Origin: a virus
Length of the DNA: 61,583 bases
Virus record (IMG/VR): IMGVR_UViG_3300025085_000018
Location: 1 to 61,583 of that record
Strand: one strand, 5' to 3'
A program made the translations under genes and the position numbers. How positions within the stretch are numbered: position 1 is the first letter of the stretch; every line of letters begins with the position of its first letter. Shown in pieces: positions 9,340 to 56,983 of this stretch. The notes under the pieces were generated by a model. It did no database searches. It saw only the letters and a list, made by a program, of their open reading frames with translations, and was not told the DNA's origin.

Positions 9340-9653
9340 CACTATTTTACCAGACTAACTCGTGGATTAGTCAACCACAACAAAATGAAAAACGATTGAA
9401 CCTATGGAACCACATTGCTAAAAAAGCAAACTGGCGTATAGTTCAATTACCAAACGGCTATTATCAAACAGAGTACAAAGATCCTGATTGTGAGTGTAAT
9501 CCTGAAAAGGATACGTGCTGCGAAAAATGGATAGATGTGACTAGGAGAGAATCAATGCAAGCCGCCGAAACCTCAATAGATAAAACTATTGAACACTACC
9601 AAAAGAAAGTTGAATTTTTAAACGGACCAAAAGTAGTAAAGACCTTTAAGTAA
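9336..9653 (+). CDS. Hypothetical protein with Cys cluster
   Basis: 105 aa. The N-terminal half is aromatic and basic (WNHIAKKANWRIVQLPNGYYQTEY). A cysteine cluster, CECNPEKDTCCEKW (about residues 53-66), could bind metal. The C-terminal half is helical (ESMQAAETSIDKTIEHYQKK). It lies between virion-type genes and the chaperonin pair. Function unknown. Confidence 0.7.
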   Translation: MTLFYQTNSWISQPQQNEKRLNLWNHIAKKANWRIVQLPNGYYQTEYKDPDCECNPEKDTCCEKWIDVTRRESMQAAETSIDKTIEHYQKKVEFLNGPKVVKTFK

Positions 9654-9685
9654 AACCAAACCAATCTAATCAAATTAAATCAAAT

Positions 9686-11239
9686 ATGGACGGAATTGTC
9701 AAAAACCTTAGCTTTGGTGACGAAGCTAAACAAAAGGTATTTAAAGGAATAGATAAACTCACTAAAGCTGTTAGCTCTACATTAGGGGCTAGCGGCAAGT
9801 GTGTTATCATGGAGGATAACTCTGGTGTTCCTATAATAACAAAAGATGGTGTAACAGTAGCTAATTCTGTTATACTAAGAGATCCTGTAGAAAATATGGG
9901 TGCTACGTTATTAAAAGAAGCAGCTAGAAAAACAGTAAGAGAAGCTGGCGACGGTACAACTACAGCTACAGTATTAGCACACTCAATAATGAATAGTGCT
10001 AAAAGTAGTGATAGAAAAGTAAGAGATGGTATATCATCTGGTGTAGATAAAGTTATTGATTACTTAAAATCTATATCAATACCTGTAAAAGGTAAAATGA
10101 TTGATGACATAGCTACTATATCTACAAATAACGACAAAGAACTTGGTAAATTAATAGCTGATGCTTTTAGATCAGTTGGCCAAACAGGTGTTGTTACTAT
10201 GGAGCCATCAGAAGGTGGTTTAACAGAAGTTGAAATAGTAGAAGGTGTTGAGTACGAAAAAGGTTTTTCTCACGGTGAATTTATAACAGATAAAGACAAA
10301 GGTACAGCTGAGCTAGACAATGCTTTAGTTTTACTTATGGATTCTAAGATAGATTCAATAAGACAAATACAACCAGTACTAGAACATGTTATAAAAGGTA
10401 ACAAGGCTTTGTTAATTATTGGTGAAGTTGAAGCTGGTGTTTTATCAGCTCTTGTAATGAACAAGAAAAAAGGTAATATAAAAATAAATGTTATAGAACC
10501 ACCTGCTTTTGGATTAAGAAGAAAAGAAATATTTAACGACTTATCTTTATTAACAGGAGCAACTATTATAAACGAAGATTTAGGTGATGATTTAAACACT
10601 ATACAAGTTAATTATCTTGGTAAATGTGTTAAGTCAACATCCACTCAAGATGAAACTATTATACAAATAAATGATGTGTCTGAAGAGGTAGACGATATAA
10701 TAGAAAAAATAAAAAAAGATTTAAAAAAGAAAAATAAAGCACATATTCAAATTGGTCTTGAAAAAAGATTAGCTAGATTAAGTGCAAAAGTAGCAATAGT
10801 TAAAATTGGTGCTAATTCTGATATTGAATTAAAAGAAAAAAGTGATAGAGTCGAAGATGCTATTTGTGCTACTAAAGCTGCTATTAAAGAAGGTATTGTA
10901 CCAGGTGGTGGTATTGCTTTGCTTAACGCTTCTAGTGTTTTAAAACCTGAGAACAAAGGTGAAGAAGTATTACTTGAAGCTATAAAAGCACCGTTTAACA
11001 CATTATTAAGTAATGCCGGTATAGTTTTAACGTCTGAACAATTAAAAAATTTACATTCAAACGAAGGTAAAGGATTAGATGTGGTTACAGGAAATATGGT
11101 AAATATGGTAAAGCTAGGTATTATAGATCCATTACTGGTAACAAAAAGCGCTTTAATAAACGCAGCTTCTGTAGCTACTACAATACTTTCAACTGATTGT
11201 GTAATAAATAACATGAGGATAGATGAAGGCAATAGGTAG
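9686..11239 (+). CDS. groEL: Phage chaperonin GroEL (Cpn60)
   Basis: 517 aa against about 545 in bacterial GroEL. Conserved features: TLGASGKCVIMEDNSG and ITKDGVTVA near the N-terminus, the ATP-site loop GDGTTTATVLA (about residues 88-98), the catalytic Asp region RVEDAICATKAAIKEG (about 388-403), and the PGGGIALL motif. The apical region is diverged and Lys-rich (residues 330-355), and the flexible Gly-Gly-Met tail is missing. In the family, 14-mer rings fold proteins in an ATP-driven cycle with GroES. Here it most likely folds phage virion proteins such as the capsid or the giant ejection protein. It overlaps groES by 17 nt; the gene order is groEL then groES, opposite to most bacterial operons. 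Confidence 0.95.
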   Translation: MDGIVKNLSFGDEAKQKVFKGIDKLTKAVSSTLGASGKCVIMEDNSGVPIITKDGVTVANSVILRDPVENMGATLLKEAARKTVREAGDGTTTATVLAHSIMNSAKSSDRKVRDGISSGVDKVIDYLKSISIPVKGKMIDDIATISTNNDKELGKLIADAFRSVGQTGVVTMEPSEGGLTEVEIVEGVEYEKGFSHGEFITDKDKGTAELDNALVLLMDSKIDSIRQIQPVLEHVIKGNKALLIIGEVEAGVLSALVMNKKKGNIKINVIEPPAFGLRRKEIFNDLSLLTGATIINEDLGDDLNTIQVNYLGKCVKSTSTQDETIIQINDVSEEVDDIIEKIKKDLKKKNKAHIQIGLEKRLARLSAKVAIVKIGANSDIELKEKSDRVEDAICATKAAIKEGIVPGGGIALLNASSVLKPENKGEEVLLEAIKAPFNTLLSNAGIVLTSEQLKNLHSNEGKGLDVVTGNMVNMVKLGIIDPLLVTKSALINAASVATTILSTDCVINNMRIDEGNR

Positions 11240-35215: not shown

Positions 35216-36850
35216 ATGGGAGCATACGATAATCCAACAATAATAAAAGACATGTACGGAGCTGAAGCTTGGGCGGCAGCTGCTAACCAAATTTCTAACG
35301 CTTCTGTTGGCATGGTTAAGTCATTTGCTGATGCTGCTGTAAAAAGAGCAGATAAAGCTGAAAAAGAAGAAAAAGATAGAGCAGCTCTTGAAGCAAGTGT
35401 AACCATTAAGCAAGCTGAAGCTGCTAACAAAAACTTTAATTCTGAAGAATGGCAAAATACACCCAAAAGTTTAATGGACCAAGCTAAAGATTATAATAAT
35501 TTTAATATGCTAGGTGGTGTTCATAATATAAATGGAGTGGATGTTGATTTTGGTATTGGTTCTGTTAAAGCTGAAATGTTAGTAAACGATCCTAACACTT
35601 CTTCAGAAGATAGAGTTAAATACATGTCTATAGTTAATGATGCTAAAAATTCACTAAGTACATTTGCTCAAGAAGCAGGTTTAGTTTTAGCTGATGAAAA
35701 AGACTTTAACGCTTCTTTAACATCAACTGGATCTTATTATTCTGGTACTGATAATCTTGAAAGATTTGAAAGTCAACTAGTGGCTAACGCTTTATATAAT
35801 AAAAACGGTATAATGCCAGAAGGTTTTGATGTTCAAAAAACATATTCTAAAGTATTTAAAGATGATCAGTCTAAGTTTTCACAAACACTTTTAACTTTTG
35901 ATTTTACAACTAACATAAATAATCCTTTATTACCTGAAGATCTTCGTGCTAAACTTGAAAAAAGCCAAGATGAAAATGGTAATGTAACAATTAAAAAAGA
36001 ATACAACTTAAGTGATGGTAGTTGGGATGGTAATTTAATTAATCCTAAAGAGTTAGAAAACGCTGATTACTTATCAGCCTCTAAAGGTTTAACTAATGAG
36101 TCGGGTGTTTTTAGTGATAAAATGGAAGTACCTTTAGCTAGTACCTCTAGTATAAGAAAAGGTAAAGATTTAAATGTTCAAACAGTATCTAAATGGATGG
36201 ATGTTAGTGCTTACGAATCAGCCGTTAAAGAAACTACTAAAAAACAAGCAGCGTCAGCTTTTGCTTTAATGAGTCAAACACAACAAGGTTTTGAGGCTTA
36301 TCTTAGAAACATGGAGCCTAAGTCAGCTATACCTGAGTATAATGAATTACTTAAAAACAAAAAACTAACTTCCAGTGAAATACTTTCTTTATTAGAAGAA
36401 ACAGAAATGAAGTCAGCTAAGTATAAAGTAGGTTTACTAGAAGGTGTTTCTGATCCAGATGGTTTTCAAATGACAAGAAGAGCAATAACACAAGCTGAAA
36501 TAAATGATTTAAAAGCTGCAGGTATACCAGCTGCTGAAAATATGAATGTAGGTGACATGCAGTATTTTAAAACTAAGTCTACAGAAAAACAAAAAGTAAA
36601 ATCAAGTAGTAGTGGTAGTAGTAGAAAAGGTAATACTGAAAAACAACAAGAAAAAATTGATTTTGCTAGTGACGTTGCTAATAACCCTGATTCTTTTAAA
36701 ATAATGAGAACAATACCTGGATCAGGTGGTAGAAAAATAAAATTAAATAGTGATGGAACTTATAAAATTTATGGAAAAGACAATAGTCCTGTTCCAGGAA
36801 GAACTAGCGTAAGCAAAGAAGATTTAATGAAAATTTATCCAATTAAATAA
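35216..36850 (+). CDS. Internal virion protein, gp15-like
   Basis: 544 aa. Mostly helical, with a charged and Ala-rich start (MYGAEAWAAAANQISNASVGM), a coiled-coil-like stretch (ADAAVKRADKAEKEEKDRAALE) and a basic C-terminus with a short repeat of Ser (SSSSGSSRKGNTEKQQ). It lies between the gp14-like and the giant gp16-like proteins, the same order as in T7. Function as ejection-tube component is inferred. Confidence 0.7.
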   Translation: MGAYDNPTIIKDMYGAEAWAAAANQISNASVGMVKSFADAAVKRADKAEKEEKDRAALEASVTIKQAEAANKNFNSEEWQNTPKSLMDQAKDYNNFNMLGGVHNINGVDVDFGIGSVKAEMLVNDPNTSSEDRVKYMSIVNDAKNSLSTFAQEAGLVLADEKDFNASLTSTGSYYSGTDNLERFESQLVANALYNKNGIMPEGFDVQKTYSKVFKDDQSKFSQTLLTFDFTTNINNPLLPEDLRAKLEKSQDENGNVTIKKEYNLSDGSWDGNLINPKELENADYLSASKGLTNESGVFSDKMEVPLASTSSIRKGKDLNVQTVSKWMDVSAYESAVKETTKKQAASAFALMSQTQQGFEAYLRNMEPKSAIPEYNELLKNKKLTSSEILSLLEETEMKSAKYKVGLLEGVSDPDGFQMTRRAITQAEINDLKAAGIPAAENMNVGDMQYFKTKSTEKQKVKSSSSGSSRKGNTEKQQEKIDFASDVANNPDSFKIMRTIPGSGGRKIKLNSDGTYKIYGKDNSPVPGRTSVSKEDLMKIYPIK

Positions 36851-36857
36851 AAATAAA

Positions 36858-39800
36858 ATGGCAATAGATCCAATTTATATACACCCACTATATGGAGAGC
36901 TTTCAGCTGAAGAAATTAACGCTTTAGCTGAAGAGAACAATATGAGTTTAGAAGATTATTTAGCAGATCAAAATGTTGAATTCAAAGAATCTGAACCTGT
37001 AGGTACAGGTACTGTTCTTAGAAACGAAGAAGTTGACTTAGATTCTTTTTATGATCCATCAAAAAAAGTACCAGTTGTTGCAGCAGAGGATGCGGGTGTA
37101 GCAACGGAGATAGACGAGACATCCAAGTTGGAATCACAATTGGAAGATATTTTATCGGAATACAAAAAAGTAAATAATAGTTTTTATGGTGATACATACA
37201 ATGGTAGTGTTGCTGGTAAAATGTTACTTGATGAGCGTTATAGTAATGTAAGAAGTAAATTAAAAAAAGCTTATCAAAATTCTGAAATGGACATAAATAA
37301 ACCTATGTCTATTATAGATAAAACAGAAGAAGAAGTTCAGTCTTTTTTAATGAACGAGTATCCTGGTGTTTATATAGAACAGACTGGTGTAAGAAATGCA
37401 TTAAATATAACTTTACCTGGAGAAAATAAATCTACAGAATTAGACTTACAACCTTTCACTTTAGATGGTAGAGACGAAGCTGTAGATATACTAAAAAAAT
37501 TAGATAAAGCATATAAAAACCAGACAGACGAAGAATTGGTTATTAATACTGTTGGTCAATTAGCTGATGTATTAGGCGAAACAAAAGATGATAGGTCTAT
37601 AAATAAAGCTTTAGAAGGTACAGGTTATAGCGTTTCTATTAATGCAGCTAGTGGATCTTTCAAAGACGGTACTAATCAACCATACTCTTATAATGTTATA
37701 AAAGACGGTAATGTAATTAAGGAAAAACTAGATGTTTCTGAGTTAAGATCTTTTATGACAGAAGATTTAGGTAAAGAAGGTTACGCGGCTATAATGAAAA
37801 ATAGCTATGAAGCAACTAGCAATTACTTAGAAACAAAAGCTAGAGATATAAAAAAAGAAGAGACAGTTATAAAATCTGATAAATCTCTAGATTTAAAATA
37901 TTTTAAAAATACTTTTGCTGATGATATAATAGCAAACATAAATCAAGTTTTACCAGAAGACTTAAGCTCTGAAGAACAAGAGCAAATTAAATCTTACATG
38001 GAAAATAACGCTATAGGTGAAATGGTTTATAACGCTAAGCTAGATAAAATGGTTAAAGCGCCTAGCAAAATTGATGATGACGTTAATAAAATGAAAGATC
38101 TAAGTGGTTTACCACAAGCTATCTTAGATAAAATACAACAAGCTGGTGGCGTAAAATTTATACAAGGTATGTATAAAGCTGGTATTGAAAACCTAAAAAA
38201 AGAAGAACTGCTTGACAGATCTAGAACCATAGGTGAAAAAATAATGGCTAATTCTGGTAATCAAAACCTAATAAGATTAGGTCAAGGCATTGCTGGAATT
38301 GAAAAAAATAAATTTGATCAAAGAATAAAAGAGCAAGTCAAAGAGCTTCCTAAAATATACGAAGAAAGATTTGGAGAGGTATTAAATACTAGAGCAAAAG
38401 AAATATTAGAAAATGCACCAAGAGATACTAAGTTAAGTATAGACTACACGCCAAGTGGTGATCCTATTTTTTCTTTAACAAATGATAGAAATCTTAGTAC
38501 TGAGGAAGGTAGATTATTTAAAGAAGCAGAGTCTCAAATATTTAAACTACAAAATGACTTTGCTAATCTTCAATTAGATTATTCTGCTACATTAAGTAAT
38601 ATGCAGCAAGAAGTTTCTGAGTTTTATGCTGCTAATCCTGTTGATGCTGATGTTTTTAAAGATTCTATGAAAGAATATGGACTAGGTAGTTTGTTTGCTA
38701 AAGATGTCAACGATGCTTTTGCTGGAATATTATTAGCCGCACCTACTTTAGTTAACTCTGATTGGGCTTTAGAAGCTCAAAAAAGATTAAATGCTAAAAA
38801 TGATTACTTTGAAACAATGGGTAGCTATGATGATGGGGATTTTGGTACTTTCTTTTTTAGAACATTAGGCCAGCAATCGGGTAATATAACACTAGCTATA
38901 GCTACCGGAGGTATTGGCTCTGCTGCAGGACTATCTTCTGCTATGACAGCTAATGCTATTGGTGGTTTATTTGGTTTGTCATCAGGTACACAAACATACA
39001 GAGATCTTAAAACACAGCAACAAATAGTAGGAACAGCTGATAAACAAGCTAAAATTGCTCTAGACGCTTACGAAAATGGAGTTATAGATTTATATACTTA
39101 TACTAATACTATGAGAGATATAAACAAAACTAAAGCTATGAGTGAAATAAGCGACGATCAAATAGTTAGCGCATCATTAGCTAATGGTATAATTGAAGGT
39201 ACTGTAACTAGATTTTTAGGTACAGCACCAAACACAATAAAGCTTTTAAAAGATTTTAAAGCACCTACGTCGTTAACAAGTGTATCTAAAAATTTATACG
39301 CGAATAAATACGAAAAAATAGCTGACTTAATAGGTAAACCACTATTAATGCGTGGTTCAGGAGAACTTGCTGAAGAAGAATTAATATATGGTGGTCAACA
39401 GTTTATAACAGAGTTTGGTATACTTGATAGAGAATTAGATCTTAGTGCTTGGGATGATACCGCTATGTCTACCATAATAACACTAGGTGTTTCACAAAGC
39501 CCAGGTGTTGCTTATTCTGGTATGGTAAATTATAATGCTACAAAAGATTTTGAAAAGAAAATAAACAAACTTAGAGTTAACAACAATGAGCTTAGCACAT
39601 TAATACAAGACTCTAAGTTAGACGCTAAACAGAAAAAATTATTACTTTCTGATATGGCTGAAAACTTAAAAGAACAAGGTTTAGAAGTTGACAGACTAGG
39701 CGTAGACATATTAGGTCGTAATTCTAACGATATAAAAAGATTAATAGGTACGGAGTTAATTAAATCACAGATTTTAGCTCAAGCAGGTGTTATGCCAGGT

Positions 39801-42800
39801 ATGTCAGATGTAGATAAAGCTGAAGTTATAAAGTCTTATAAAGAATCTTTAACAAAAGAACAAGCTAAAGTATTTGAAACTCAATTAAATGTTTTAGACA
39901 AACAAACTAATGTTATAAAAAACAAACCAACAAGCTTAACTAAAGCTAAAGAAAGCTTAGGTAGCATATGGACTACTAACGATTCTTACTTGAGTAAAAC
40001 AAACAAAGATGGTTATAATGAAAAATCTACAGAAGATAAGTTAGTAGCTGTTATAAACCAAGTAAGAGAGAGTGTAGGTAGGTCTAGTAAGAAAGCAGCA
40101 AAAGCAAATCCTGATATTGTTGCTATGGTTGAAAGCGAAACAATAAACGATAAACCTTTAAATAAAAAACAAAAGGAAATAAGATATCGTGAGCTTGGAG
40201 ATTTGATGGCTTTGAATCAATCAAGAGCTATATCTGTTGCAGAAGGTGTTAATGCTAAAGCCGCAGACATATTTGCAGACATAGATAATGTAAATATAGT
40301 AGAATACAAAACCGCAGAAGAACTAGAAACTGCTTTACTTGCTAATGGCGTAGAGGTTAATACTCCAGAGTATAACGAAGCTATTAAAAAGTTTAACAAT
40401 GGTCAAACATATGGAGCTGTTATGGGTAACACTATAATAACTCAAAATGCTGAGCAAGCTAAAAAAGATCTTGAAAATGGTGAAATAAGAGCTGGAACTG
40501 TTATAATACATGAATTTGCTCATATTGTAGATGATGCCCGTATAAAGCCAGAGAATAGAAAAATATATGCTGAAAATTTAGCTGCAGCAGCTGCTAACAC
40601 CGATAATCAAGCTATAAAAGCTGTGGATAGATCAGTTAGAAACATGCTTGATAATTTATACTCTAAAGACAATTTAACTTTTGAAAACAGTGATAAGTAT
40701 AGAGATGAGTATACTAAATACATGCAGGAAAGTTTATACGCTTTTGAAGATGAGGTTCAAATAGAAAAAGAAGATAGTTTTATAACTAGAGTATTTAATA
40801 GTACTGATCCTAACAAACTTAATACACCTGAAAAAGCTTTAGATTATTTAGCCGCAAACAACGCTGCGTTTAGATCTGGCAAGATAAGTAAGAAAACTAA
40901 AAAAGCTTTAAAAGATTTTAAAGGAAAAGAAACTAAGTTATCAGATAAATCTAGTGTTAATAAGTTAGCTATAGAATTTAAAAATAACCCTAAAGACTTT
41001 AAAGCTGACAAAGCTAAGTTTACTAATTTCTTTATACAAGCCCAGTCTGTAGCTATAGATGCTATGGGTTACAATGTAGCTAAGGGAGATATACTTGCAA
41101 GTGACGCAGCACAATTTGTTGCTACTGAAATTGAAAGCGTAATTAATACTTTTGATCCTAGTAAAGGAGCTTTTACAACACATGTTGTTAATAGTTTTAA
41201 AAACAGAAGAGCAAATAAGTTTTATAAACAAGAGTTTGCACCTAAAGATATAAAGAAAACTAGAATAGGTACCGGTTTTGACATAGTAGACCAAAGCTCT
41301 ACTGAAACTCTAAGCGAAAGACAAGCTAGAGAAGATAAAGAAACAACATCTAAAGTAGATCCTAGAAAATTTAAGATTGTTGCTTCTGATATAAAAAACA
41401 TGGAGAGTATGGTTGATGTTAAACCTAGCGATGTTGCTCCATTTAAATTAGACTTTAAAGAAATAAGTAGTAGATATGGTAGTAAACTAGCAGCTGCTAT
41501 GTACAATATATCTAATGATAAAATATCTAAAAACTCTAACTTAACTTATGCTAAGAAAATAGTAAATGGTATACCAGAAAATTCAGAAGCTGGTAGAATA
41601 CAAGATGACTTTAGAGATGCGCAAGAAGTTAAAAAGTTTTTAAAATCATTACCACCTACAAACGTTACATCTAAAGAGTCACAAGTTGGTCCACAGGGTG
41701 AAATGGTTCCGGTGTCAAAAGATACACAAGGTAGATCTATTGGTTTAAAAGGTAGAGTATTAGATTACTTTTATGCTGATAAAACAGGTGAAAGATCATC
41801 TGGTTTAACTAGCCAGCCATTTATAAGAAGATTAAAACCAGAATTTACAGGAGCTATATCTAGCGAAACTATAAAAAAGTTACAAGAAGACATGGGTATA
41901 ACGCCTATGGGTCAGCTCAATAACTACAATAGAAATATAGGTACTTTCTTAAATGGTATAGCTAAGTTAAAAGGTTCTATAATAGCTAACACAATAGCAA
42001 GAGATAAAGTTTCAAAGTTTACAGAAAGATCATCTAGGTCACCTAAACAGATACAAGCTGATATGGGCGCTGGTAGATCTGAAGTTCAGTTTAGTGAAAA
42101 AGTAAAAAGCATATTATCTAATCCAACTTTTAAACTAGAGACAAGAGGTATTGATGGTTTATTAAAAGCTTATAATATAGACGGTACTTTTAAATTTAAA
42201 ACTAGAGATGATGTAGATAAATACATTGCTGAAGTTAAAAAGAATTTACTACCTTTAATGCCAAAAGATTTTTGGTTTGGAAAACCTAATAAAAAAGGAA
42301 ACTATGGAACTGTATTTACACCAAGTTCTAAAGTTTTAGGAACCACAGATGTTAGTAAAGCTCTATATAAAGAATACTATGTAGATCAAATGAAAAAATT
42401 AGCTTTAGACACTAACCAAAAATACGGAGCGCCTATAAAAGGTGTTAGTGATTTTTCAGTTTCTGGATACGATACGTTGTTTAAAACTAAAGCTATAATA
42501 AAAGCTAAAATAAAGTCAGGTGATATAGATGCTTTTAATAAAAAAGTAAGTAAAATCCATCAAGCTATGTGGTATAGATTTAATGAAGCTATACGATCTA
42601 ATAAGGAAAACGCTAGAGTAATAGGTAATTATCTAAAAATAACTGGAAGCGACACTGGTCATTGGCATAAGCTAGGTGCTCAGTTCGTAGGTTACTCTAA
42701 TGAAATAACAGGCAGTAGATTTGAATACGAGCATGCTATGCCTGCTACGTCTGCTTACTTGTATTTGCTAGATGTAGCGTTGTCTAAAAGTGCATTTGAA

Positions 42801-45800
42801 AGCGCTTATGATTTTATTATAGACAACTACAAGCTTATATCCTTAGATAAAGCTATGGACAAAAAACTTATAGCTGTAGGTCTTCGTAGCGAAATGCCTG
42901 TTAATTGGAACTTATTAGAAAACAATTGGTATGATAGGTATTTTAGTAAACTAGTAGCAACGCAAGACGGTGGTATAGATCCAAGAGGATTAATAAGTAT
43001 TGACGGAACTAATTTCCAAGAAAAATATAATATAAATGCCGATGGTAGTTCTTATATAAGAGGAACTTTTAAGCCAGAGGCTAAATCACAAATTGAAAAA
43101 GATAACATAGCTGATAAAGCTATGAGAAATGCTAGAAGCCCTAAGTATTCTGAGAAAATTAAAAAAGCTAGAGTATTTGATTTTGACGATACATTAGCTA
43201 AATCTAATAGCAAAGTACTTGTTGAAACATTGGATGGTAATACATTTAAAATAAACGCAACAGAGTTTGCACGAAGAGCGGCAGAGCTAGAACAACAGGG
43301 TGCTAAATTTGATTTTACTGAATTTGAAAAAGTTATTGATGGTAAAAAAGGACCTTTGTTTGAAGTAGCTAAAAAAATACAAGATGCTAGAGGTTCAGAA
43401 GATATATTTGTTTTAACAGCTAGGCCTCAAAACGCAGATAAAGCTATAAAAAACTTTTTATCTAGTTTAGGTTTAAACATACCTTTATCTAATATAACTG
43501 GTTTATCAGACGGAAAACCTCAAGCAAAAGCAGACTGGATGCTTGGAAAATTTGCAGAAGGTTATAACGATTTTTACTTTACAGATGATGCAATGAAAAA
43601 TGTTAAAGCTGTTAAAGATGTTTTAAGCGTTCTTGATGTTAAATCTAAAGTACAGCAAGCTAGAATAAAGTTTAGCGAAAAACTTAGTGATGAGTTTAAC
43701 GCTATGATAGAAAGAAACAAAGGTGTTCCTGCTAAAGCTACTTTTTCAGACGCATTAGCTAGAAGAAGAGGCCAAAAACAAAAAAGATTTTCATTTTTTG
43801 TACCACCTTCAGCTGATGACTTTAGAGGTTTAACAATGTACACTTTTGCTGGTAAAGGCAAACAAGGTGAAATGGATCAAGAGTTCTTTGACAAAGCCTT
43901 AATAAAACCTTACATGAGAGGTATTGGTGCTGTAGAGCAAGCTAAACAAAGAATAACAAACGATTATAGAGCTTTAGTTAAGAAATATCCTAAAATAAAA
44001 AGAAAACTAAGAAAAAAGTTTGAAGAAACTAAATACACTACAGATGAAGCTATTAGAATATTTTTATGGGATAGAGCAGGTTTTGTTATACCAGGTTTAT
44101 CTAAGACTGATCAAGCTAAAGTAGTTAAATTAGTTTCTAATGATACAGATTTAGTTCAATTTGCAGATGGTGTTGAGTTAATAACTAGATTAGATAAATT
44201 TGTAGAACCTACAGATTTCTGGGATGCTAGCACAATAATAGGTGATTTAAGCAGAGTAGGTAGAGATATTAATAGAAAAGAATATTTAGCTGAGTTTATA
44301 GAAAACGTAGATATAATATTTTCACCTGAAAACTTAAATAAAGTACAAGCTTTATATGGGTTTAGAATAAGAGAATCGCTAGAGAACTCTATAAAAAGAA
44401 TGAAGAGTGGTAGTAATAAAGCTACAGGGGGTGGAAGATTAGTAGAATCTTGGAATAATTGGGTTAACAACTCTGTTGGTGCAATTATGTTCTTTAACAG
44501 AAGATCAGCACTATTACAGTTAATGTCTTCAGCTAACTTTATTAATTGGTCAGACAATAACCCAGCACAAGCAGCTTTAGCTTTAGCAAATCAACCTCAG
44601 TATTGGAAAGATGTTATAATGTTATTTAATTCACCTAAACTAAAACAAAGAAGATCTGGTTTAGAGGGTGATATACAAGAAGCTGAAATAGCACAAGCAT
44701 CTAGAAAAGGTGGTATGACAGGTGTTATATCTTACTTGTTAAAAATAGGTTTTACACCTACACAAATAGCAGATAGTATAGCTATATCAACAGGTGGTGC
44801 AACTTTTTATAGAAACAGAGTTAATACTTACAAGAAAGATGGCTTTGAAACAGCTGATGCAGAAGCTAAAGCTTTTGAGGATTTTAGTGCTATATCTGAT
44901 GAAACACAGCAATCAGCAGATCCAATGCTTATATCAGGCCAACAAGCTAGTGTATTAGGTAGATTAGTTTTAGCTTTCCAAAACACACCTATGCAATATA
45001 CTAGGTTAATTAAAAAAGCTGGTCAAGATCTTATAAACGGAAGAGGTAGTAAAAAGCAGAATATATCTAAAATACTATACTATGGAGCTATACAAAACTT
45101 TATATTCAACGCTTTACAAAACGCATTGTTTGCTTTAATACCAGGGTTTGATGACGAAGATGAAGATTTTGCAACAGATAAAGAAAAAGAAAAATACGAC
45201 GAAAAGAAAATTAGAGGTGAAGAAAATAAAATAGCTAGAATAGCTAATGGTATGGTTGATTCAATTGTTCGTGGTTCTGGTTTAGCAGGTGCGGTAGCTG
45301 TTACTGTTAAAAACACTATAAGAGAGTTTATAGAATACCAAGAAAAACCTGTGTTCTCTAGAGAAAAAGGAGATATCGTTTTAGCTGCACTTCAAATATC
45401 ACCGCCAATAGGTTCTAAAGCTAGAAAAATAAATGCTGCATTACAAACTTTACAATATGAAAAAGATGTAATTGATGAAAGAGGCTTTGATGTTACAATA
45501 GATGGTAAGTTTCAACTTAGTCCTACGTACAACATGATAGGTTCATTATCAGCTGCAACACTTAATTTACCTTTAGATAGAGCTGTAGATGAAGTTAATT
45601 CTATAACAGAAGCTTTAGATACTAGAAACACACAATGGCAAAGAATAGCTCTTGCTTTAGGTTGGAGATCATGGGATACAGGTGTTAAAATTGAAGAACA
45701 TGATTTAATAAAAACAAAAGCTAAAGAAGCTAGAAAAATAGCTGGTAAAGAAAAAGCTAAAGAAACTAGAAAAATAAACAAGCAAAAAACAAAAGAGTAT

Positions 45801-45941
45801 AAAGCTTACAGATTATTAGTTTTAGAATCGGTTCCAGATAATGTTCTTGAAATGATTTATTCAGAAGAAAGAAAAACAGGTAAACCATACCCTGCTTTTA
45901 AACTTCAAAAAATATATGATAAATATTCAGATTTAAAATAA
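36858..45941 (+). CDS. Giant multidomain ejection protein (gp16-like), with HExxH peptidase and HAD domains
   Basis: 3027 aa, about twice T7 gp16. From N to C: helical start; a Gly/Ala-rich hydrophobic stretch (about 676-712); HEFAH (1218-1222) in VIIHEFAHIVDDAR, a zinc metallopeptidase core; a segment INTFDPSKGAFTTHVVNSFKNRR (about 1430, split here) like sigma-factor region 2; a HAD phosphatase-type domain with VFDFDDTLA (Asp2108, Asp2110), LTAR (about 2185), a Lys (about 2218) and a DDA acidic pair (about 2242); and a C-terminus of a type common in large virion proteins (SALLQLMSSANFINW... TPMQYTRLIKKAG). No transglycosylase motif was recognised. Such proteins enter the cell with the genome and may act on the envelope or on host targets. 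Confidence 0.9.
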   Translation: MAIDPIYIHPLYGELSAEEINALAEENNMSLEDYLADQNVEFKESEPVGTGTVLRNEEVDLDSFYDPSKKVPVVAAEDAGVATEIDETSKLESQLEDILSEYKKVNNSFYGDTYNGSVAGKMLLDERYSNVRSKLKKAYQNSEMDINKPMSIIDKTEEEVQSFLMNEYPGVYIEQTGVRNALNITLPGENKSTELDLQPFTLDGRDEAVDILKKLDKAYKNQTDEELVINTVGQLADVLGETKDDRSINKALEGTGYSVSINAASGSFKDGTNQPYSYNVIKDGNVIKEKLDVSELRSFMTEDLGKEGYAAIMKNSYEATSNYLETKARDIKKEETVIKSDKSLDLKYFKNTFADDIIANINQVLPEDLSSEEQEQIKSYMENNAIGEMVYNAKLDKMVKAPSKIDDDVNKMKDLSGLPQAILDKIQQAGGVKFIQGMYKAGIENLKKEELLDRSRTIGEKIMANSGNQNLIRLGQGIAGIEKNKFDQRIKEQVKELPKIYEERFGEVLNTRAKEILENAPRDTKLSIDYTPSGDPIFSLTNDRNLSTEEGRLFKEAESQIFKLQNDFANLQLDYSATLSNMQQEVSEFYAANPVDADVFKDSMKEYGLGSLFAKDVNDAFAGILLAAPTLVNSDWALEAQKRLNAKNDYFETMGSYDDGDFGTFFFRTLGQQSGNITLAIATGGIGSAAGLSSAMTANAIGGLFGLSSGTQTYRDLKTQQQIVGTADKQAKIALDAYENGVIDLYTYTNTMRDINKTKAMSEISDDQIVSASLANGIIEGTVTRFLGTAPNTIKLLKDFKAPTSLTSVSKNLYANKYEKIADLIGKPLLMRGSGELAEEELIYGGQQFITEFGILDRELDLSAWDDTAMSTIITLGVSQSPGVAYSGMVNYNATKDFEKKINKLRVNNNELSTLIQDSKLDAKQKKLLLSDMAENLKEQGLEVDRLGVDILGRNSNDIKRLIGTELIKSQILAQAGVMPGMSDVDKAEVIKSYKESLTKEQAKVFETQLNVLDKQTNVIKNKPTSLTKAKESLGSIWTTNDSYLSKTNKDGYNEKSTEDKLVAVINQVRESVGRSSKKAAKANPDIVAMVESETINDKPLNKKQKEIRYRELGDLMALNQSRAISVAEGVNAKAADIFADIDNVNIVEYKTAEELETALLANGVEVNTPEYNEAIKKFNNGQTYGAVMGNTIITQNAEQAKKDLENGEIRAGTVIIHEFAHIVDDARIKPENRKIYAENLAAAAANTDNQAIKAVDRSVRNMLDNLYSKDNLTFENSDKYRDEYTKYMQESLYAFEDEVQIEKEDSFITRVFNSTDPNKLNTPEKALDYLAANNAAFRSGKISKKTKKALKDFKGKETKLSDKSSVNKLAIEFKNNPKDFKADKAKFTNFFIQAQSVAIDAMGYNVAKGDILASDAAQFVATEIESVINTFDPSKGAFTTHVVNSFKNRRANKFYKQEFAPKDIKKTRIGTGFDIVDQSSTETLSERQAREDKETTSKVDPRKFKIVASDIKNMESMVDVKPSDVAPFKLDFKEISSRYGSKLAAAMYNISNDKISKNSNLTYAKKIVNGIPENSEAGRIQDDFRDAQEVKKFLKSLPPTNVTSKESQVGPQGEMVPVSKDTQGRSIGLKGRVLDYFYADKTGERSSGLTSQPFIRRLKPEFTGAISSETIKKLQEDMGITPMGQLNNYNRNIGTFLNGIAKLKGSIIANTIARDKVSKFTERSSRSPKQIQADMGAGRSEVQFSEKVKSILSNPTFKLETRGIDGLLKAYNIDGTFKFKTRDDVDKYIAEVKKNLLPLMPKDFWFGKPNKKGNYGTVFTPSSKVLGTTDVSKALYKEYYVDQMKKLALDTNQKYGAPIKGVSDFSVSGYDTLFKTKAIIKAKIKSGDIDAFNKKVSKIHQAMWYRFNEAIRSNKENARVIGNYLKITGSDTGHWHKLGAQFVGYSNEITGSRFEYEHAMPATSAYLYLLDVALSKSAFESAYDFIIDNYKLISLDKAMDKKLIAVGLRSEMPVNWNLLENNWYDRYFSKLVATQDGGIDPRGLISIDGTNFQEKYNINADGSSYIRGTFKPEAKSQIEKDNIADKAMRNARSPKYSEKIKKARVFDFDDTLAKSNSKVLVETLDGNTFKINATEFARRAAELEQQGAKFDFTEFEKVIDGKKGPLFEVAKKIQDARGSEDIFVLTARPQNADKAIKNFLSSLGLNIPLSNITGLSDGKPQAKADWMLGKFAEGYNDFYFTDDAMKNVKAVKDVLSVLDVKSKVQQARIKFSEKLSDEFNAMIERNKGVPAKATFSDALARRRGQKQKRFSFFVPPSADDFRGLTMYTFAGKGKQGEMDQEFFDKALIKPYMRGIGAVEQAKQRITNDYRALVKKYPKIKRKLRKKFEETKYTTDEAIRIFLWDRAGFVIPGLSKTDQAKVVKLVSNDTDLVQFADGVELITRLDKFVEPTDFWDASTIIGDLSRVGRDINRKEYLAEFIENVDIIFSPENLNKVQALYGFRIRESLENSIKRMKSGSNKATGGGRLVESWNNWVNNSVGAIMFFNRRSALLQLMSSANFINWSDNNPAQAALALANQPQYWKDVIMLFNSPKLKQRRSGLEGDIQEAEIAQASRKGGMTGVISYLLKIGFTPTQIADSIAISTGGATFYRNRVNTYKKDGFETADAEAKAFEDFSAISDETQQSADPMLISGQQASVLGRLVLAFQNTPMQYTRLIKKAGQDLINGRGSKKQNISKILYYGAIQNFIFNALQNALFALIPGFDDEDEDFATDKEKEKYDEKKIRGEENKIARIANGMVDSIVRGSGLAGAVAVTVKNTIREFIEYQEKPVFSREKGDIVLAALQISPPIGSKARKINAALQTLQYEKDVIDERGFDVTIDGKFQLSPTYNMIGSLSAATLNLPLDRAVDEVNSITEALDTRNTQWQRIALALGWRSWDTGVKIEEHDLIKTKAKEARKIAGKEKAKETRKINKQKTKEYKAYRLLVLESVPDNVLEMIYSEERKTGKPYPAFKLQKIYDKYSDLK

Positions 45942-56227: not shown

Positions 56228-56983
56228 CTAAAGATAATCAAGCACTTGCGAGTGATCTACATTATCTATTAATTTTTGTACAGCTTGCTTTTTTAGCTCA
56301 GATACACGTACATAATCACTAACACCTACTATGTTTAATTCTTTAGCTATTGCTTTTGCTGAATACTTATCACAGTCTAAACCGTAAGACATTCTTAACA
56401 CTTCATATTCATTGTGAGTTAAATGCTTCTGCATAAGACTCTTTAAATACAAGTTCATTAACTGTATGTTATAAGGTTCTGACTTATCTGCTATTTGATA
56501 CATCATATTTTCTTCATCATCATTTGTAACTTGTGCATCTATTGATAAAAATATACTATTGAAAAATATTTCTACCATCTTTTTATCTTTAGGATTTTTA
56601 CGCATGTTATTAAGCTGATGCTCAGGTATTCTCATATCACCTCTATTTCTGTCTATTGCTCTACGTATAGCTCCTTTAATTCTTTTAGATAAAAAAGATT
56701 TTAATGTTTTTTCTATGTCTTCTGATTCACCTAACATATTCCAATCTATTTTATCAACAGCTTTTGTTAATCCTGAACAACCTTCTTGTATTATATCGTT
56801 TATACTCATAACACCTGAAGCTTGCTGTGTTGTTGAAAACTTACGGCCTAGGTTTTCTACCAAAGGCATAAATTTTATTATAAGTTCTTTTCGTGTATAT
56901 TTATCATAAGGTTTATCATCGGGCATAGACTTCTTAACATCTTCCTTATATCTTATATAGTTTTGTACGTTATATTTCTTCAT
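56228..56983 (-). CDS. Phage RNA polymerase sigma-70-like factor
   Basis: 251 aa. Region 2: SINDIIQEGCSGLTKAVDKIDW and FLSKRIKGAIRRAIDRNRGDMRIPEHQ (about 60-125) match the sigma-70 core-binding and -10 region, with the ARxxxDRN style of -10 recognition. Region 4: LTHNEYEVLRMSYGLDCDKYSAKAIAKELNIVGVSDYVRVSELKKQAVQKL (about 187-237, split here) is an HTH. The region between is short and acidic. It probably redirects host polymerase to late phage promoters. It is encoded in the leftward operon next to an HTH regulator. Confidence 0.9.
   Translation of the reverse strand: MKKYNVQNYIRYKEDVKKSMPDDKPYDKYTRKELIIKFMPLVENLGRKFSTTQQASGVMSINDIIQEGCSGLTKAVDKIDWNMLGESEDIEKTLKSFLSKRIKGAIRRAIDRNRGDMRIPEHQLNNMRKNPKDKKMVEIFFNSIFLSIDAQVTNDDEENMMYQIADKSEPYNIQLMNLYLKSLMQKHLTHNEYEVLRMSYGLDCDKYSAKAIAKELNIVGVSDYVRVSELKKQAVQKLIDNVDHSQVLDYL

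What the first reader, a model, noticed from the sequence alone, without database searches (positions are those of the whole stretch)
36858..45941. 3027-aa ejection protein with HExxH peptidase and HAD phosphatase-type domains
The protein has an HEFAH core near 1218 and complete HAD motifs from 2108 to about 2242, plus a sigma-region-2-like segment near 1430. Carrying several enzymes in one ejected virion protein fits a polyvalent protein that modifies the host at entry. The size is about twice that of T7 gp16.
Basis: partly seen in the sequence, partly recalled or inferred. Interest (0 to 1): 0.65.

Follow-up and report, generated by a model that had tools for sequence, protein, structure and literature searches.

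The report
Giant phage ejection protein with enzymes
A crAss-like marine phage carries one 3027-residue protein that is probably packed in the particle and pushed into the bacterium ahead of the DNA; it bears a metallopeptidase site, a sigma-factor-like piece and an interchangeable enzyme slot (phosphatase here, kinase in relatives), so it is probably an enzyme toolkit delivered before any phage gene is read.

Summary
In detail: one 3027-aa ORF at 36858-45941 with HEFAH at 1218, complete HAD motifs (2108-2244) and a sigma-region-2-like stretch near 1430. Hundreds of uncultured IMG/VR relatives exist; about 100 were analysed. Across 60 aligned zincin regions (mean column identity 14%) only four columns are invariant: H1218, E1219, H1222 and E1284, a complete HExxH...E site. 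Of 101 untruncated proteins, 99 have exactly one HExxH. HAD residues are near-invariant wherever a HAD is present, and the model's nearest solved folds are T4-type Pnkp 3'-phosphatases. The HAD sits in an exchangeable slot: 9 relatives carry a PNK/zeta-like P-loop kinase there and 15 neither. The sigma-like fold is supported weakly. The N-terminal module is homologous to phi38:1/phi40:1 gp101; phi40:1 gp101 was found in virions by MS/MS, in the same gene order after the muzzle. So: very probably a virion-packaged, ejected polyvalent protein. Enzyme activity, ejection and targets are inferred. It is a new variant of a known kind (polyvalent proteins; crAss cargo).

The parts
36858..45941 (+). 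gene for the 3027-aa giant virion/ejection protein
   Evidence: single open frame; full-length homologues of 2400-3400 aa in many IMG/VR contigs
38655..39647 (+). N-terminal module (residues 600-930), Gly/Ala-rich helical, shared with virion proteins of cultured flavophages
   Evidence: profile hits elemoF gp18 2.5e-35, Gundel gp74 2.8e-35, phi38:1 gp101 4e-31, Panino CDS0069 1.6e-17, phi19:3 gp129 4e-28; crAss001 gp45-gp50 not hit
40239..40913 (+). zincin (gluzincin-type) metallopeptidase-like domain, residues 1128-1352
   Evidence: AF2 model: three strands, HExxH helix, Glu helix; VIA-align Z 7.2 to a zincin-fold domain; weak Pfam hits mostly to metallopeptidase families
40509..40523 (+). 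HEFAH (H1218, E1219, H1222), predicted zinc ligands and general base
   Evidence: invariant in 56 of 56 clusters and 60 of 60 aligned sequences
40707..40709 (+). E1284, predicted third zinc ligand
   Evidence: the only other invariant column in 60 sequences with mean column identity 14%
40938..41237 (+). sigma-region-2-like helical domain, residues 1361-1460
   Evidence: VIA-align Z 6.3 to S. aureus sigB and several other sigma factors; Sigma70_r2 weak hits at the same place in homologues; not supported by profile comparison with the phages' own sigma factors
42729..42746 (+). EHAMPA motif (1958-1963) in an unidentified middle domain; EHxxP(A/S)-like motif in 63 of 102 homologues
   Evidence: 0 of 102 in reversed sequences
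43155..43637 (+). HAD phosphatase-type domain (residues 2100-2260) in an exchangeable slot
   Evidence: motifs invariant or nearly so in 47 clusters; phrog_415 9e-6; fold nearest T4 Pnkp 3'-phosphatase, Z 10.5; replaced by a P-loop kinase in relatives
43698..45938 (+). conserved helical C-terminal module (residues 2281-3027)
   Evidence: most conserved part with the HAD; part shared with Gundel gp74 (HHalign probability 94%, E 1e-7); AF2 pLDDT about 80
34063..34464 (+). small ORF in the position of phi40:1 gp098
   Evidence: gene order
34466..35197 (+). first putative ejection partner (position of phi40:1 gp099)
   Evidence: family profile hits Gundel gp72 5e-11, phi40:1 gp099 6e-5
35216..36850 (+). 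second putative ejection partner (position of phi40:1 gp100)
   Evidence: family profile hits phi40:1 gp100 2e-5 and phi19:3 gp127 3e-5
32334..33650 (+). C-terminal half of the muzzle protein
   Evidence: Pfam crAss_MUZ_C 9e-9, above cut-off; phrog_14478 1.5e-50

Best explanation
The gene encodes a giant virion protein of the polyvalent kind, the last of a muzzle-small-220 aa-550 aa-giant series of virion genes. It is packed with the DNA and enters the cell with or before it (inferred). The N-terminal module and the conserved helical C-terminal module are the packaging/ejection vehicle; the middle is cargo. The zincin most likely cuts the protein itself, in the head or after entry, to free its parts; cutting a host protein is the alternative. 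The sigma-region-2-like piece may touch host RNA polymerase. The HAD in the exchangeable slot most likely removes a phosphate from nucleic acid ends (a Pnkp-like 3'-phosphatase), preparing ends made by host nucleases for re-sealing. Shown by computation: architecture, conserved active sites, slot exchange, homology to an MS-detected virion protein. Inferred: ejection, activity, targets.
For: Virion: phi40:1 gp098-gp101 are annotated from experimental MS/MS; gp101 is 99.9% identical to phi38:1 gp101 and is hit by the N-terminal profile at 6e-31, crAss001 cargo proteins are not; same gene order in phi38:1, elemoF, Panino and, with extra genes between, Gundel. Zincin: H1218/E1219/H1222/E1284 are the only invariant columns of 60 sequences; fold as defined for polyvalent MPTases (PMC5512222). 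99 of 101 untruncated proteins have exactly one HExxH. HAD: motifs conserved; Pnkp phosphatases are the top three folds, Z 10.5, 10.2, 9.6. Slot: 85 HAD, 9 kinase, 15 neither, at least four changes of the HAD label on the tree. Sigma-like.
Against: No virion proteomics of this phage. P0001 passes no Pfam cut-off. Generic HAD phosphatases reach Z 9.2, so the Pnkp assignment is a lead only; no T4-type RNA ligase family match in the window, though a DNA ligase gene is present. Foldseek alone gives no significant hit for either model. HHalign against the phages' own sigma factors is not significant. The contig may be incomplete.
Confidence: 0.68

Rival explanations
1. It is an internal head protein that acts only during assembly: the zincin is a maturation protease and the protein is not delivered as an effector.
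For: Phage P1 DdrB is processed before packaging, and the N4 vRNAP MPTase region is needed for encapsidation (PMC5512222). Virion presence alone does not show entry.
Against: A phosphatase or a kinase in one exchangeable slot is hard to explain as an assembly need; the neighbouring genes are the cargo/ejection set of crAss-type phages (PMC10172136).
Confidence: 0.15
2. It is the equivalent of crAss001 gp47, a subunit of a virion RNA polymerase complex, with the sigma-like part as its promoter-reading piece.
For: Same position after muzzle, C1 and C2; sigma-like fold; gp47 also has one HExxH.
Against: No DxDxD polymerase motif apart from an acidic run; no detectable homology to gp47, gp49 or gp50; the gp48-gp50 block is not seen after the gene, and the phage has its own sigma factor gene.
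Confidence: 0.06
3. The slot enzymes act on small molecules or the cell wall: the HAD as a nucleotidase, the kinase as a zeta-type sugar kinase easing entry, not on nucleic acid ends.
For: Pfam Zeta_toxin and AAA_33 score alike on the kinase; Iyer et al. place zeta-like kinases in polyvalent proteins as cell-wall agents; generic HADs score Z up to 9.2.
Against: The three best HAD folds are Pnkp phosphatases and the PHROG match is a polynucleotide kinase family; HAD phosphatase and P-loop kinase are the two halves of Pnkp.
Confidence: 0.3
4. The zincin and HAD are relics kept as structural folds.
For: One relative (L079) has a decayed HAD without motif I, and nothing measured shows activity.
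Against: Catalytic residues are the most conserved positions while the rest of the zincin region diverges to 14%.
Confidence: 0.05

Closest known systems
Cellulophaga phages phi38:1 / phi40:1 gp101 (giant structural protein)
   Same: gene position after the muzzle and two smaller virion proteins; homologous N-terminal module; found in virions by MS/MS in phi40:1
   Different: 1691 aa, no HExxH, no HAD motif, no P-loop
Tenacibaculum phage Gundel gp74 and Flavobacterium phage elemoF gp18
   Same: N-terminal module; zincin region (HHalign 78% for elemoF, 17% for Gundel); C-terminal stretch shared with Gundel (94%)
   Different: no HAD motif; elemoF carries DUF3293 instead; other middle cargo
Polyvalent proteins of phages and plasmids (Iyer et al. 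2017, PMC5512222)
   Same: very long multi-enzyme protein with a zincin MPTase of the HEXXH + Glu type
   Different: no HAD phosphatase or sigma-like domain found by word search of that paper; slot exchange within one family not described in the parts read
crAss001 cargo protein gp47 and virion RNA polymerase gp49/gp50
   Same: position after muzzle, C1 and C2; gp47 also has one HExxH
   Different: no detectable sequence homology; no DxDxD polymerase motif
T4 Pnkp 3'-phosphatase domain
   Same: nearest solved HAD fold, Z 10.5 over 120 residues, 18% identity; motifs fall in register
   Different: no kinase domain in the same protein; kinase and phosphatase alternate in one slot in this family
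T7 gp16 / N4 vRNAP ejection proteins
   Same: very large proteins packed in the head and ejected (general knowledge; N4 in PMC12633501 abstract and PMC5512222)
   Different: no homology tested directly; no transglycosylase or polymerase found here

Membership tests
Polyvalent proteins (Iyer et al. 2017) | two or more effector/enzyme domains in one long polypeptide of a mobile element | tested here: met
   zincin site and HAD domain with conserved catalytic residues; kinase in relatives
Polyvalent proteins (Iyer et al. 2017) | zincin MPTase core: three-stranded sheet, HEXXH helix, second helix with Glu | tested here: met
   AF2 model and invariant residues against the definition in PMC5512222
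Polyvalent proteins (Iyer et al. 2017) | delivered into the host with the DNA | not testable with these tools
   inferred from homology to a virion-detected protein and from gene order
HAD superfamily | DxDx(T/V), motif II Ser/Thr, motif III Lys, motif IV acidic pair on a Rossmann-like core | tested here: met
Pnkp 3'-phosphatase (T4 type) | closest fold and catalytic residues in register | tested here: inconclusive
   top three folds but generic HADs within about 1.3 Z; no sequence-profile match in PDB
Pnkp 3'-phosphatase (T4 type) | removal of 3'-phosphate from polynucleotides | not testable with these tools
   needs an enzyme assay
Sigma-70 region 2 | Pfam Sigma70_r2 match in the protein itself | tested here: not met
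   none at E <= 0.1 for P0001; weak matches in 5 of 53 homologues
Sigma-70 region 2 | region-2 helical fold | tested here: inconclusive
   Z 6.3, rmsd 3.5 over 90 residues, several sigma factors high in the list; below the level that is clear for helical folds
Pervagoviridae/Pachyviridae-type giant virion protein | homologous N-terminal module and gene position after the muzzle | tested here: met
crAss virion RNA polymerase block | DxDxD catalytic motif | tested here: not met
   only an acidic DEDED run at 2766
T7 gp16 ejection protein | homology or transglycosylase domain | not tested
   not compared directly; no transglycosylase family appeared in the Pfam scans

The most novel reading that the evidence does not exclude
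A lineage of crAss-like phages delivers nucleic-acid end-healing enzymes inside the virion: one slot of the giant ejected protein holds either a Pnkp-type 3'-phosphatase or a Pnkp-type 5'-kinase, exchanged during evolution, beside a self-processing metallopeptidase and a sigma-like piece that recruits host RNA polymerase, so that DNA or tRNA cut by host defence nucleases is made ligatable before any phage gene is expressed.
Probability: 0.22. Interest if true: 0.82.

Novelty: new variant of a known kind. Interest (0 to 1): 0.6.

Why it matters
Which enzymes tailed phages inject before transcription is an open question with few worked cases. Here a family with hundreds of uncultured members shows a fixed vehicle (conserved ends), one peptidase site that is never lost in untruncated copies, and one enzyme slot whose content changes from phosphatase to kinase to neither. 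That gives direct, testable predictions (autoprocessing, end healing), and the N-terminal module offers a way to find injected cargo in other flavophages, some of which are in culture.

Tried and rejected
Whole-protein Pfam, PHROG and PDB scans gave nothing usable; shorter domain queries did for the HAD. tblastn in the phage collection found no cultured homologue. Scanning bacterial and archaeal genomes with the C-terminal module found none. HHalign of the sigma-like region against the phages' own sigma factors was not significant, so that call rests on fold and weak Pfam hits. Foldseek alone was uninformative for both models. Homology to crAss001 gp45-gp50 was not found. The T4-type RNA ligase family PF09511 was not found in the window. 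A clear transmembrane segment in the N-terminal module was not found. The HAD frequency of the first relatives' scan was biased, because one search pattern lay in the HAD; it was repeated with patterns outside the slot, but the classified set pools both scans, so the HAD share is an upper estimate.
Full report
OBSERVATION. The window is an IMG/VR virus record. The ORF at 36858-45941 (+) is 3027 aa with an ATG start and no internal stop. HEFAH is at 1218; about 0.002 such motifs are expected by composition. HAD motifs are DFDDT 2108-2112, LTARP 2186-2190, K2224 and DD 2243-2244.

CONTEXT. Terminase, portal, virion proteins and a muzzle split into two ORFs precede the gene. The muzzle C-terminal half passes the Pfam cut-off for crAss_MUZ_C and its nearest cultured relatives are Cellulophaga phi38:1/phi40:1, Maribacter Panino, Tenacibaculum Gundel and Flavobacterium elemo phages. 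In phi38:1, elemoF and Panino the muzzle is followed closely by one or two small ORFs, a ~200-220 aa protein, a ~450-550 aa protein and a giant of 1691-3694 aa; Gundel has the same set with extra genes after the muzzle. In crAss001 the same place holds cargo proteins gp45 and gp46 and then gp47 (PMC10172136).

VIRION EVIDENCE. A profile of the N-terminal module (residues 600-930) from this family hits elemoF gp18 (2.5e-35), Gundel gp74 (2.8e-35), phi38:1 gp101 (4e-31), Panino CDS0069 (1.6e-17) and phi19:3 gp129 (4e-28), but none of crAss001 gp45, gp46, gp47, gp49, gp50, which serve as negative controls. E-values are for a handful of target proteins; HHalign agrees (probability 92-99%). phi40:1 gp101 (99.9% identical to phi38:1 gp101) and its neighbours gp098-gp100 are annotated 'based on experimental MS/MS proteomics analysis'. 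The two genes before the window's giant also match their counterparts weakly. So virion association is well supported by homology, not measured for this phage.

ZINCIN. Relatives were collected from IMG/VR. In 60 aligned zincin regions with mean column identity 14%, the only invariant columns are H1218, E1219, H1222 and E1284; the same holds across 56 clusters at 80% identity. The region was picked by its HExxH, so the independent test is E1284. Of 101 untruncated proteins 99 have exactly one HExxH, and the other two are short fragments. The AF2 model (pLDDT 80) has three strands, the HExxH helix and a second helix with E1284, the definition of the polyvalent MPTase core in PMC5512222. VIA-align gives Z 7.2 to a zincin-fold domain; weak Pfam hits of members are mostly to metallopeptidase families M91, M78, ATLF, M90 and M13. 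In that paper such domains are proposed to process the polypeptide, in the head or after entry, or to cut host proteins.

SIGMA-LIKE SEGMENT. Residues 1361-1460 of the model match sigma region 2 (S. aureus sigB Z 6.3, rmsd 3.5 over 90 residues; other sigma factors follow). Pfam Sigma70_r2 is weakly hit inside the giants of L055, L052 and L019, for L019 about 225 aa after its HExxH as in P0001, and it is the family most often hit among 53 members (5, best 8e-4). P0001 itself is not hit, and HHalign to the phages' own sigma factors fails. I call this a probable fold resemblance without shown function.

HAD AND SLOT. Conservation jumps at residue ~2100 and stays high to ~2950. The HAD matches phrog_415, a polynucleotide kinase family (9e-6), and weakly PF12710 in a close relative. 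Its model's best solved folds are T4 Pnkp 3'-phosphatase (5uj0, Z 10.5, 120 residues), the Pnkp1/Rnl/Hen1 complex (10.2) and T4 Pnkp (9.6); other HADs reach 9.2. The aligned ends put D2108/D2110, K2224 and D2243/D2244 in register with what I recall as T4 D165/D167, K258 and D277/D278 (recalled, not checked). In relatives the slot just before the conserved '...DFRGLTxYTFAGKGKQ' block is occupied differently: with search patterns outside the slot added and both scans pooled, 85 have the HAD, 9 a P-loop kinase and 15 neither. The kinase passes the Pfam cut-offs of AAA_33 and Zeta_toxin and occurs in nine contigs with distinct sequences from different samples, so it is not one chimeric assembly. 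On a tree of the C-terminal module the HAD label needs at least four changes and the kinase two, against shuffled means of 22 and 9. L079 has a decayed HAD.

HOW IT PROBABLY WORKS. Ends of the protein: packaging and ejection vehicle. Middle: cargo. The protein is loaded in the head, enters with or before the DNA, is trimmed by its own zincin, and delivers a nucleic-acid end phosphatase (a kinase in relatives) and perhaps an RNA polymerase contact before phage transcription. The genome carries an ATP-dependent DNA ligase gene that would need 3'-OH/5'-P ends; the T4-type RNA ligase family was not found. Steps after packaging are inference.

NOVELTY. Polyvalent proteins with zincins, and ejected cargo in crAss-like phages, are known. 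A HAD phosphatase or a sigma-like part in such proteins was not found by word search in PMC5512222, and I found no paper on this family. No cultured phage in the collection holds a detectable full homologue, and no bacterial or archaeal genome was found with one. I file it as a new variant of a known kind.

Noticed in passing
27398-33650: The muzzle protein appears split into two ORFs (27398-32299 and 32334-33650); both match phrog_14478, and the first carries a Fib_succ_major domain (E 8e-20). A split-looking muzzle is also seen in Maribacter phage Panino.
   Followed up: partly
42729-42746 and the middle region of homologues: An EHxxP(A/S)-like motif in an unidentified domain between the sigma-like part and the HAD slot: in 63 of 102 homologues, 0 of 102 in reversed sequences.
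   Followed up: partly
L084, L088, L090, L098, L109, L112, L115, L194, L203: A PNK/zeta-toxin-like P-loop kinase occupies the place of the HAD domain in these relatives; part of the finding, but outside the window.
   Followed up: yes
9686-11239: Phage-encoded GroEL-type chaperonin (phrog_5725, E 2e-139) upstream of the terminase; related flavophages have a GroES co-chaperonin gene near the terminase.
   Followed up: no
56228-56983 (-): Stand-alone sigma factor gene (phrog_351; Sigma70_r2 just over cut-off), found in about a third of the related contigs searched, many of which are fragments.
   Followed up: partly
L020, about 9617-9664: The giant ORF of this relative is broken into two overlapping frames (2326 and 676 aa), either an assembly error or a frameshift.
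   Followed up: no
L116, 1176-1592: A distant relative of the slot kinase (31% identity) in a contig that matches only the kinase part of the query.
   Followed up: no
crAss001 gp47 (L027:6120-13145), residue 2157: crAss001 gp47 also has one HExxH (HEAFH) near its C-terminus; no profile match to the zincin here.
   Followed up: no
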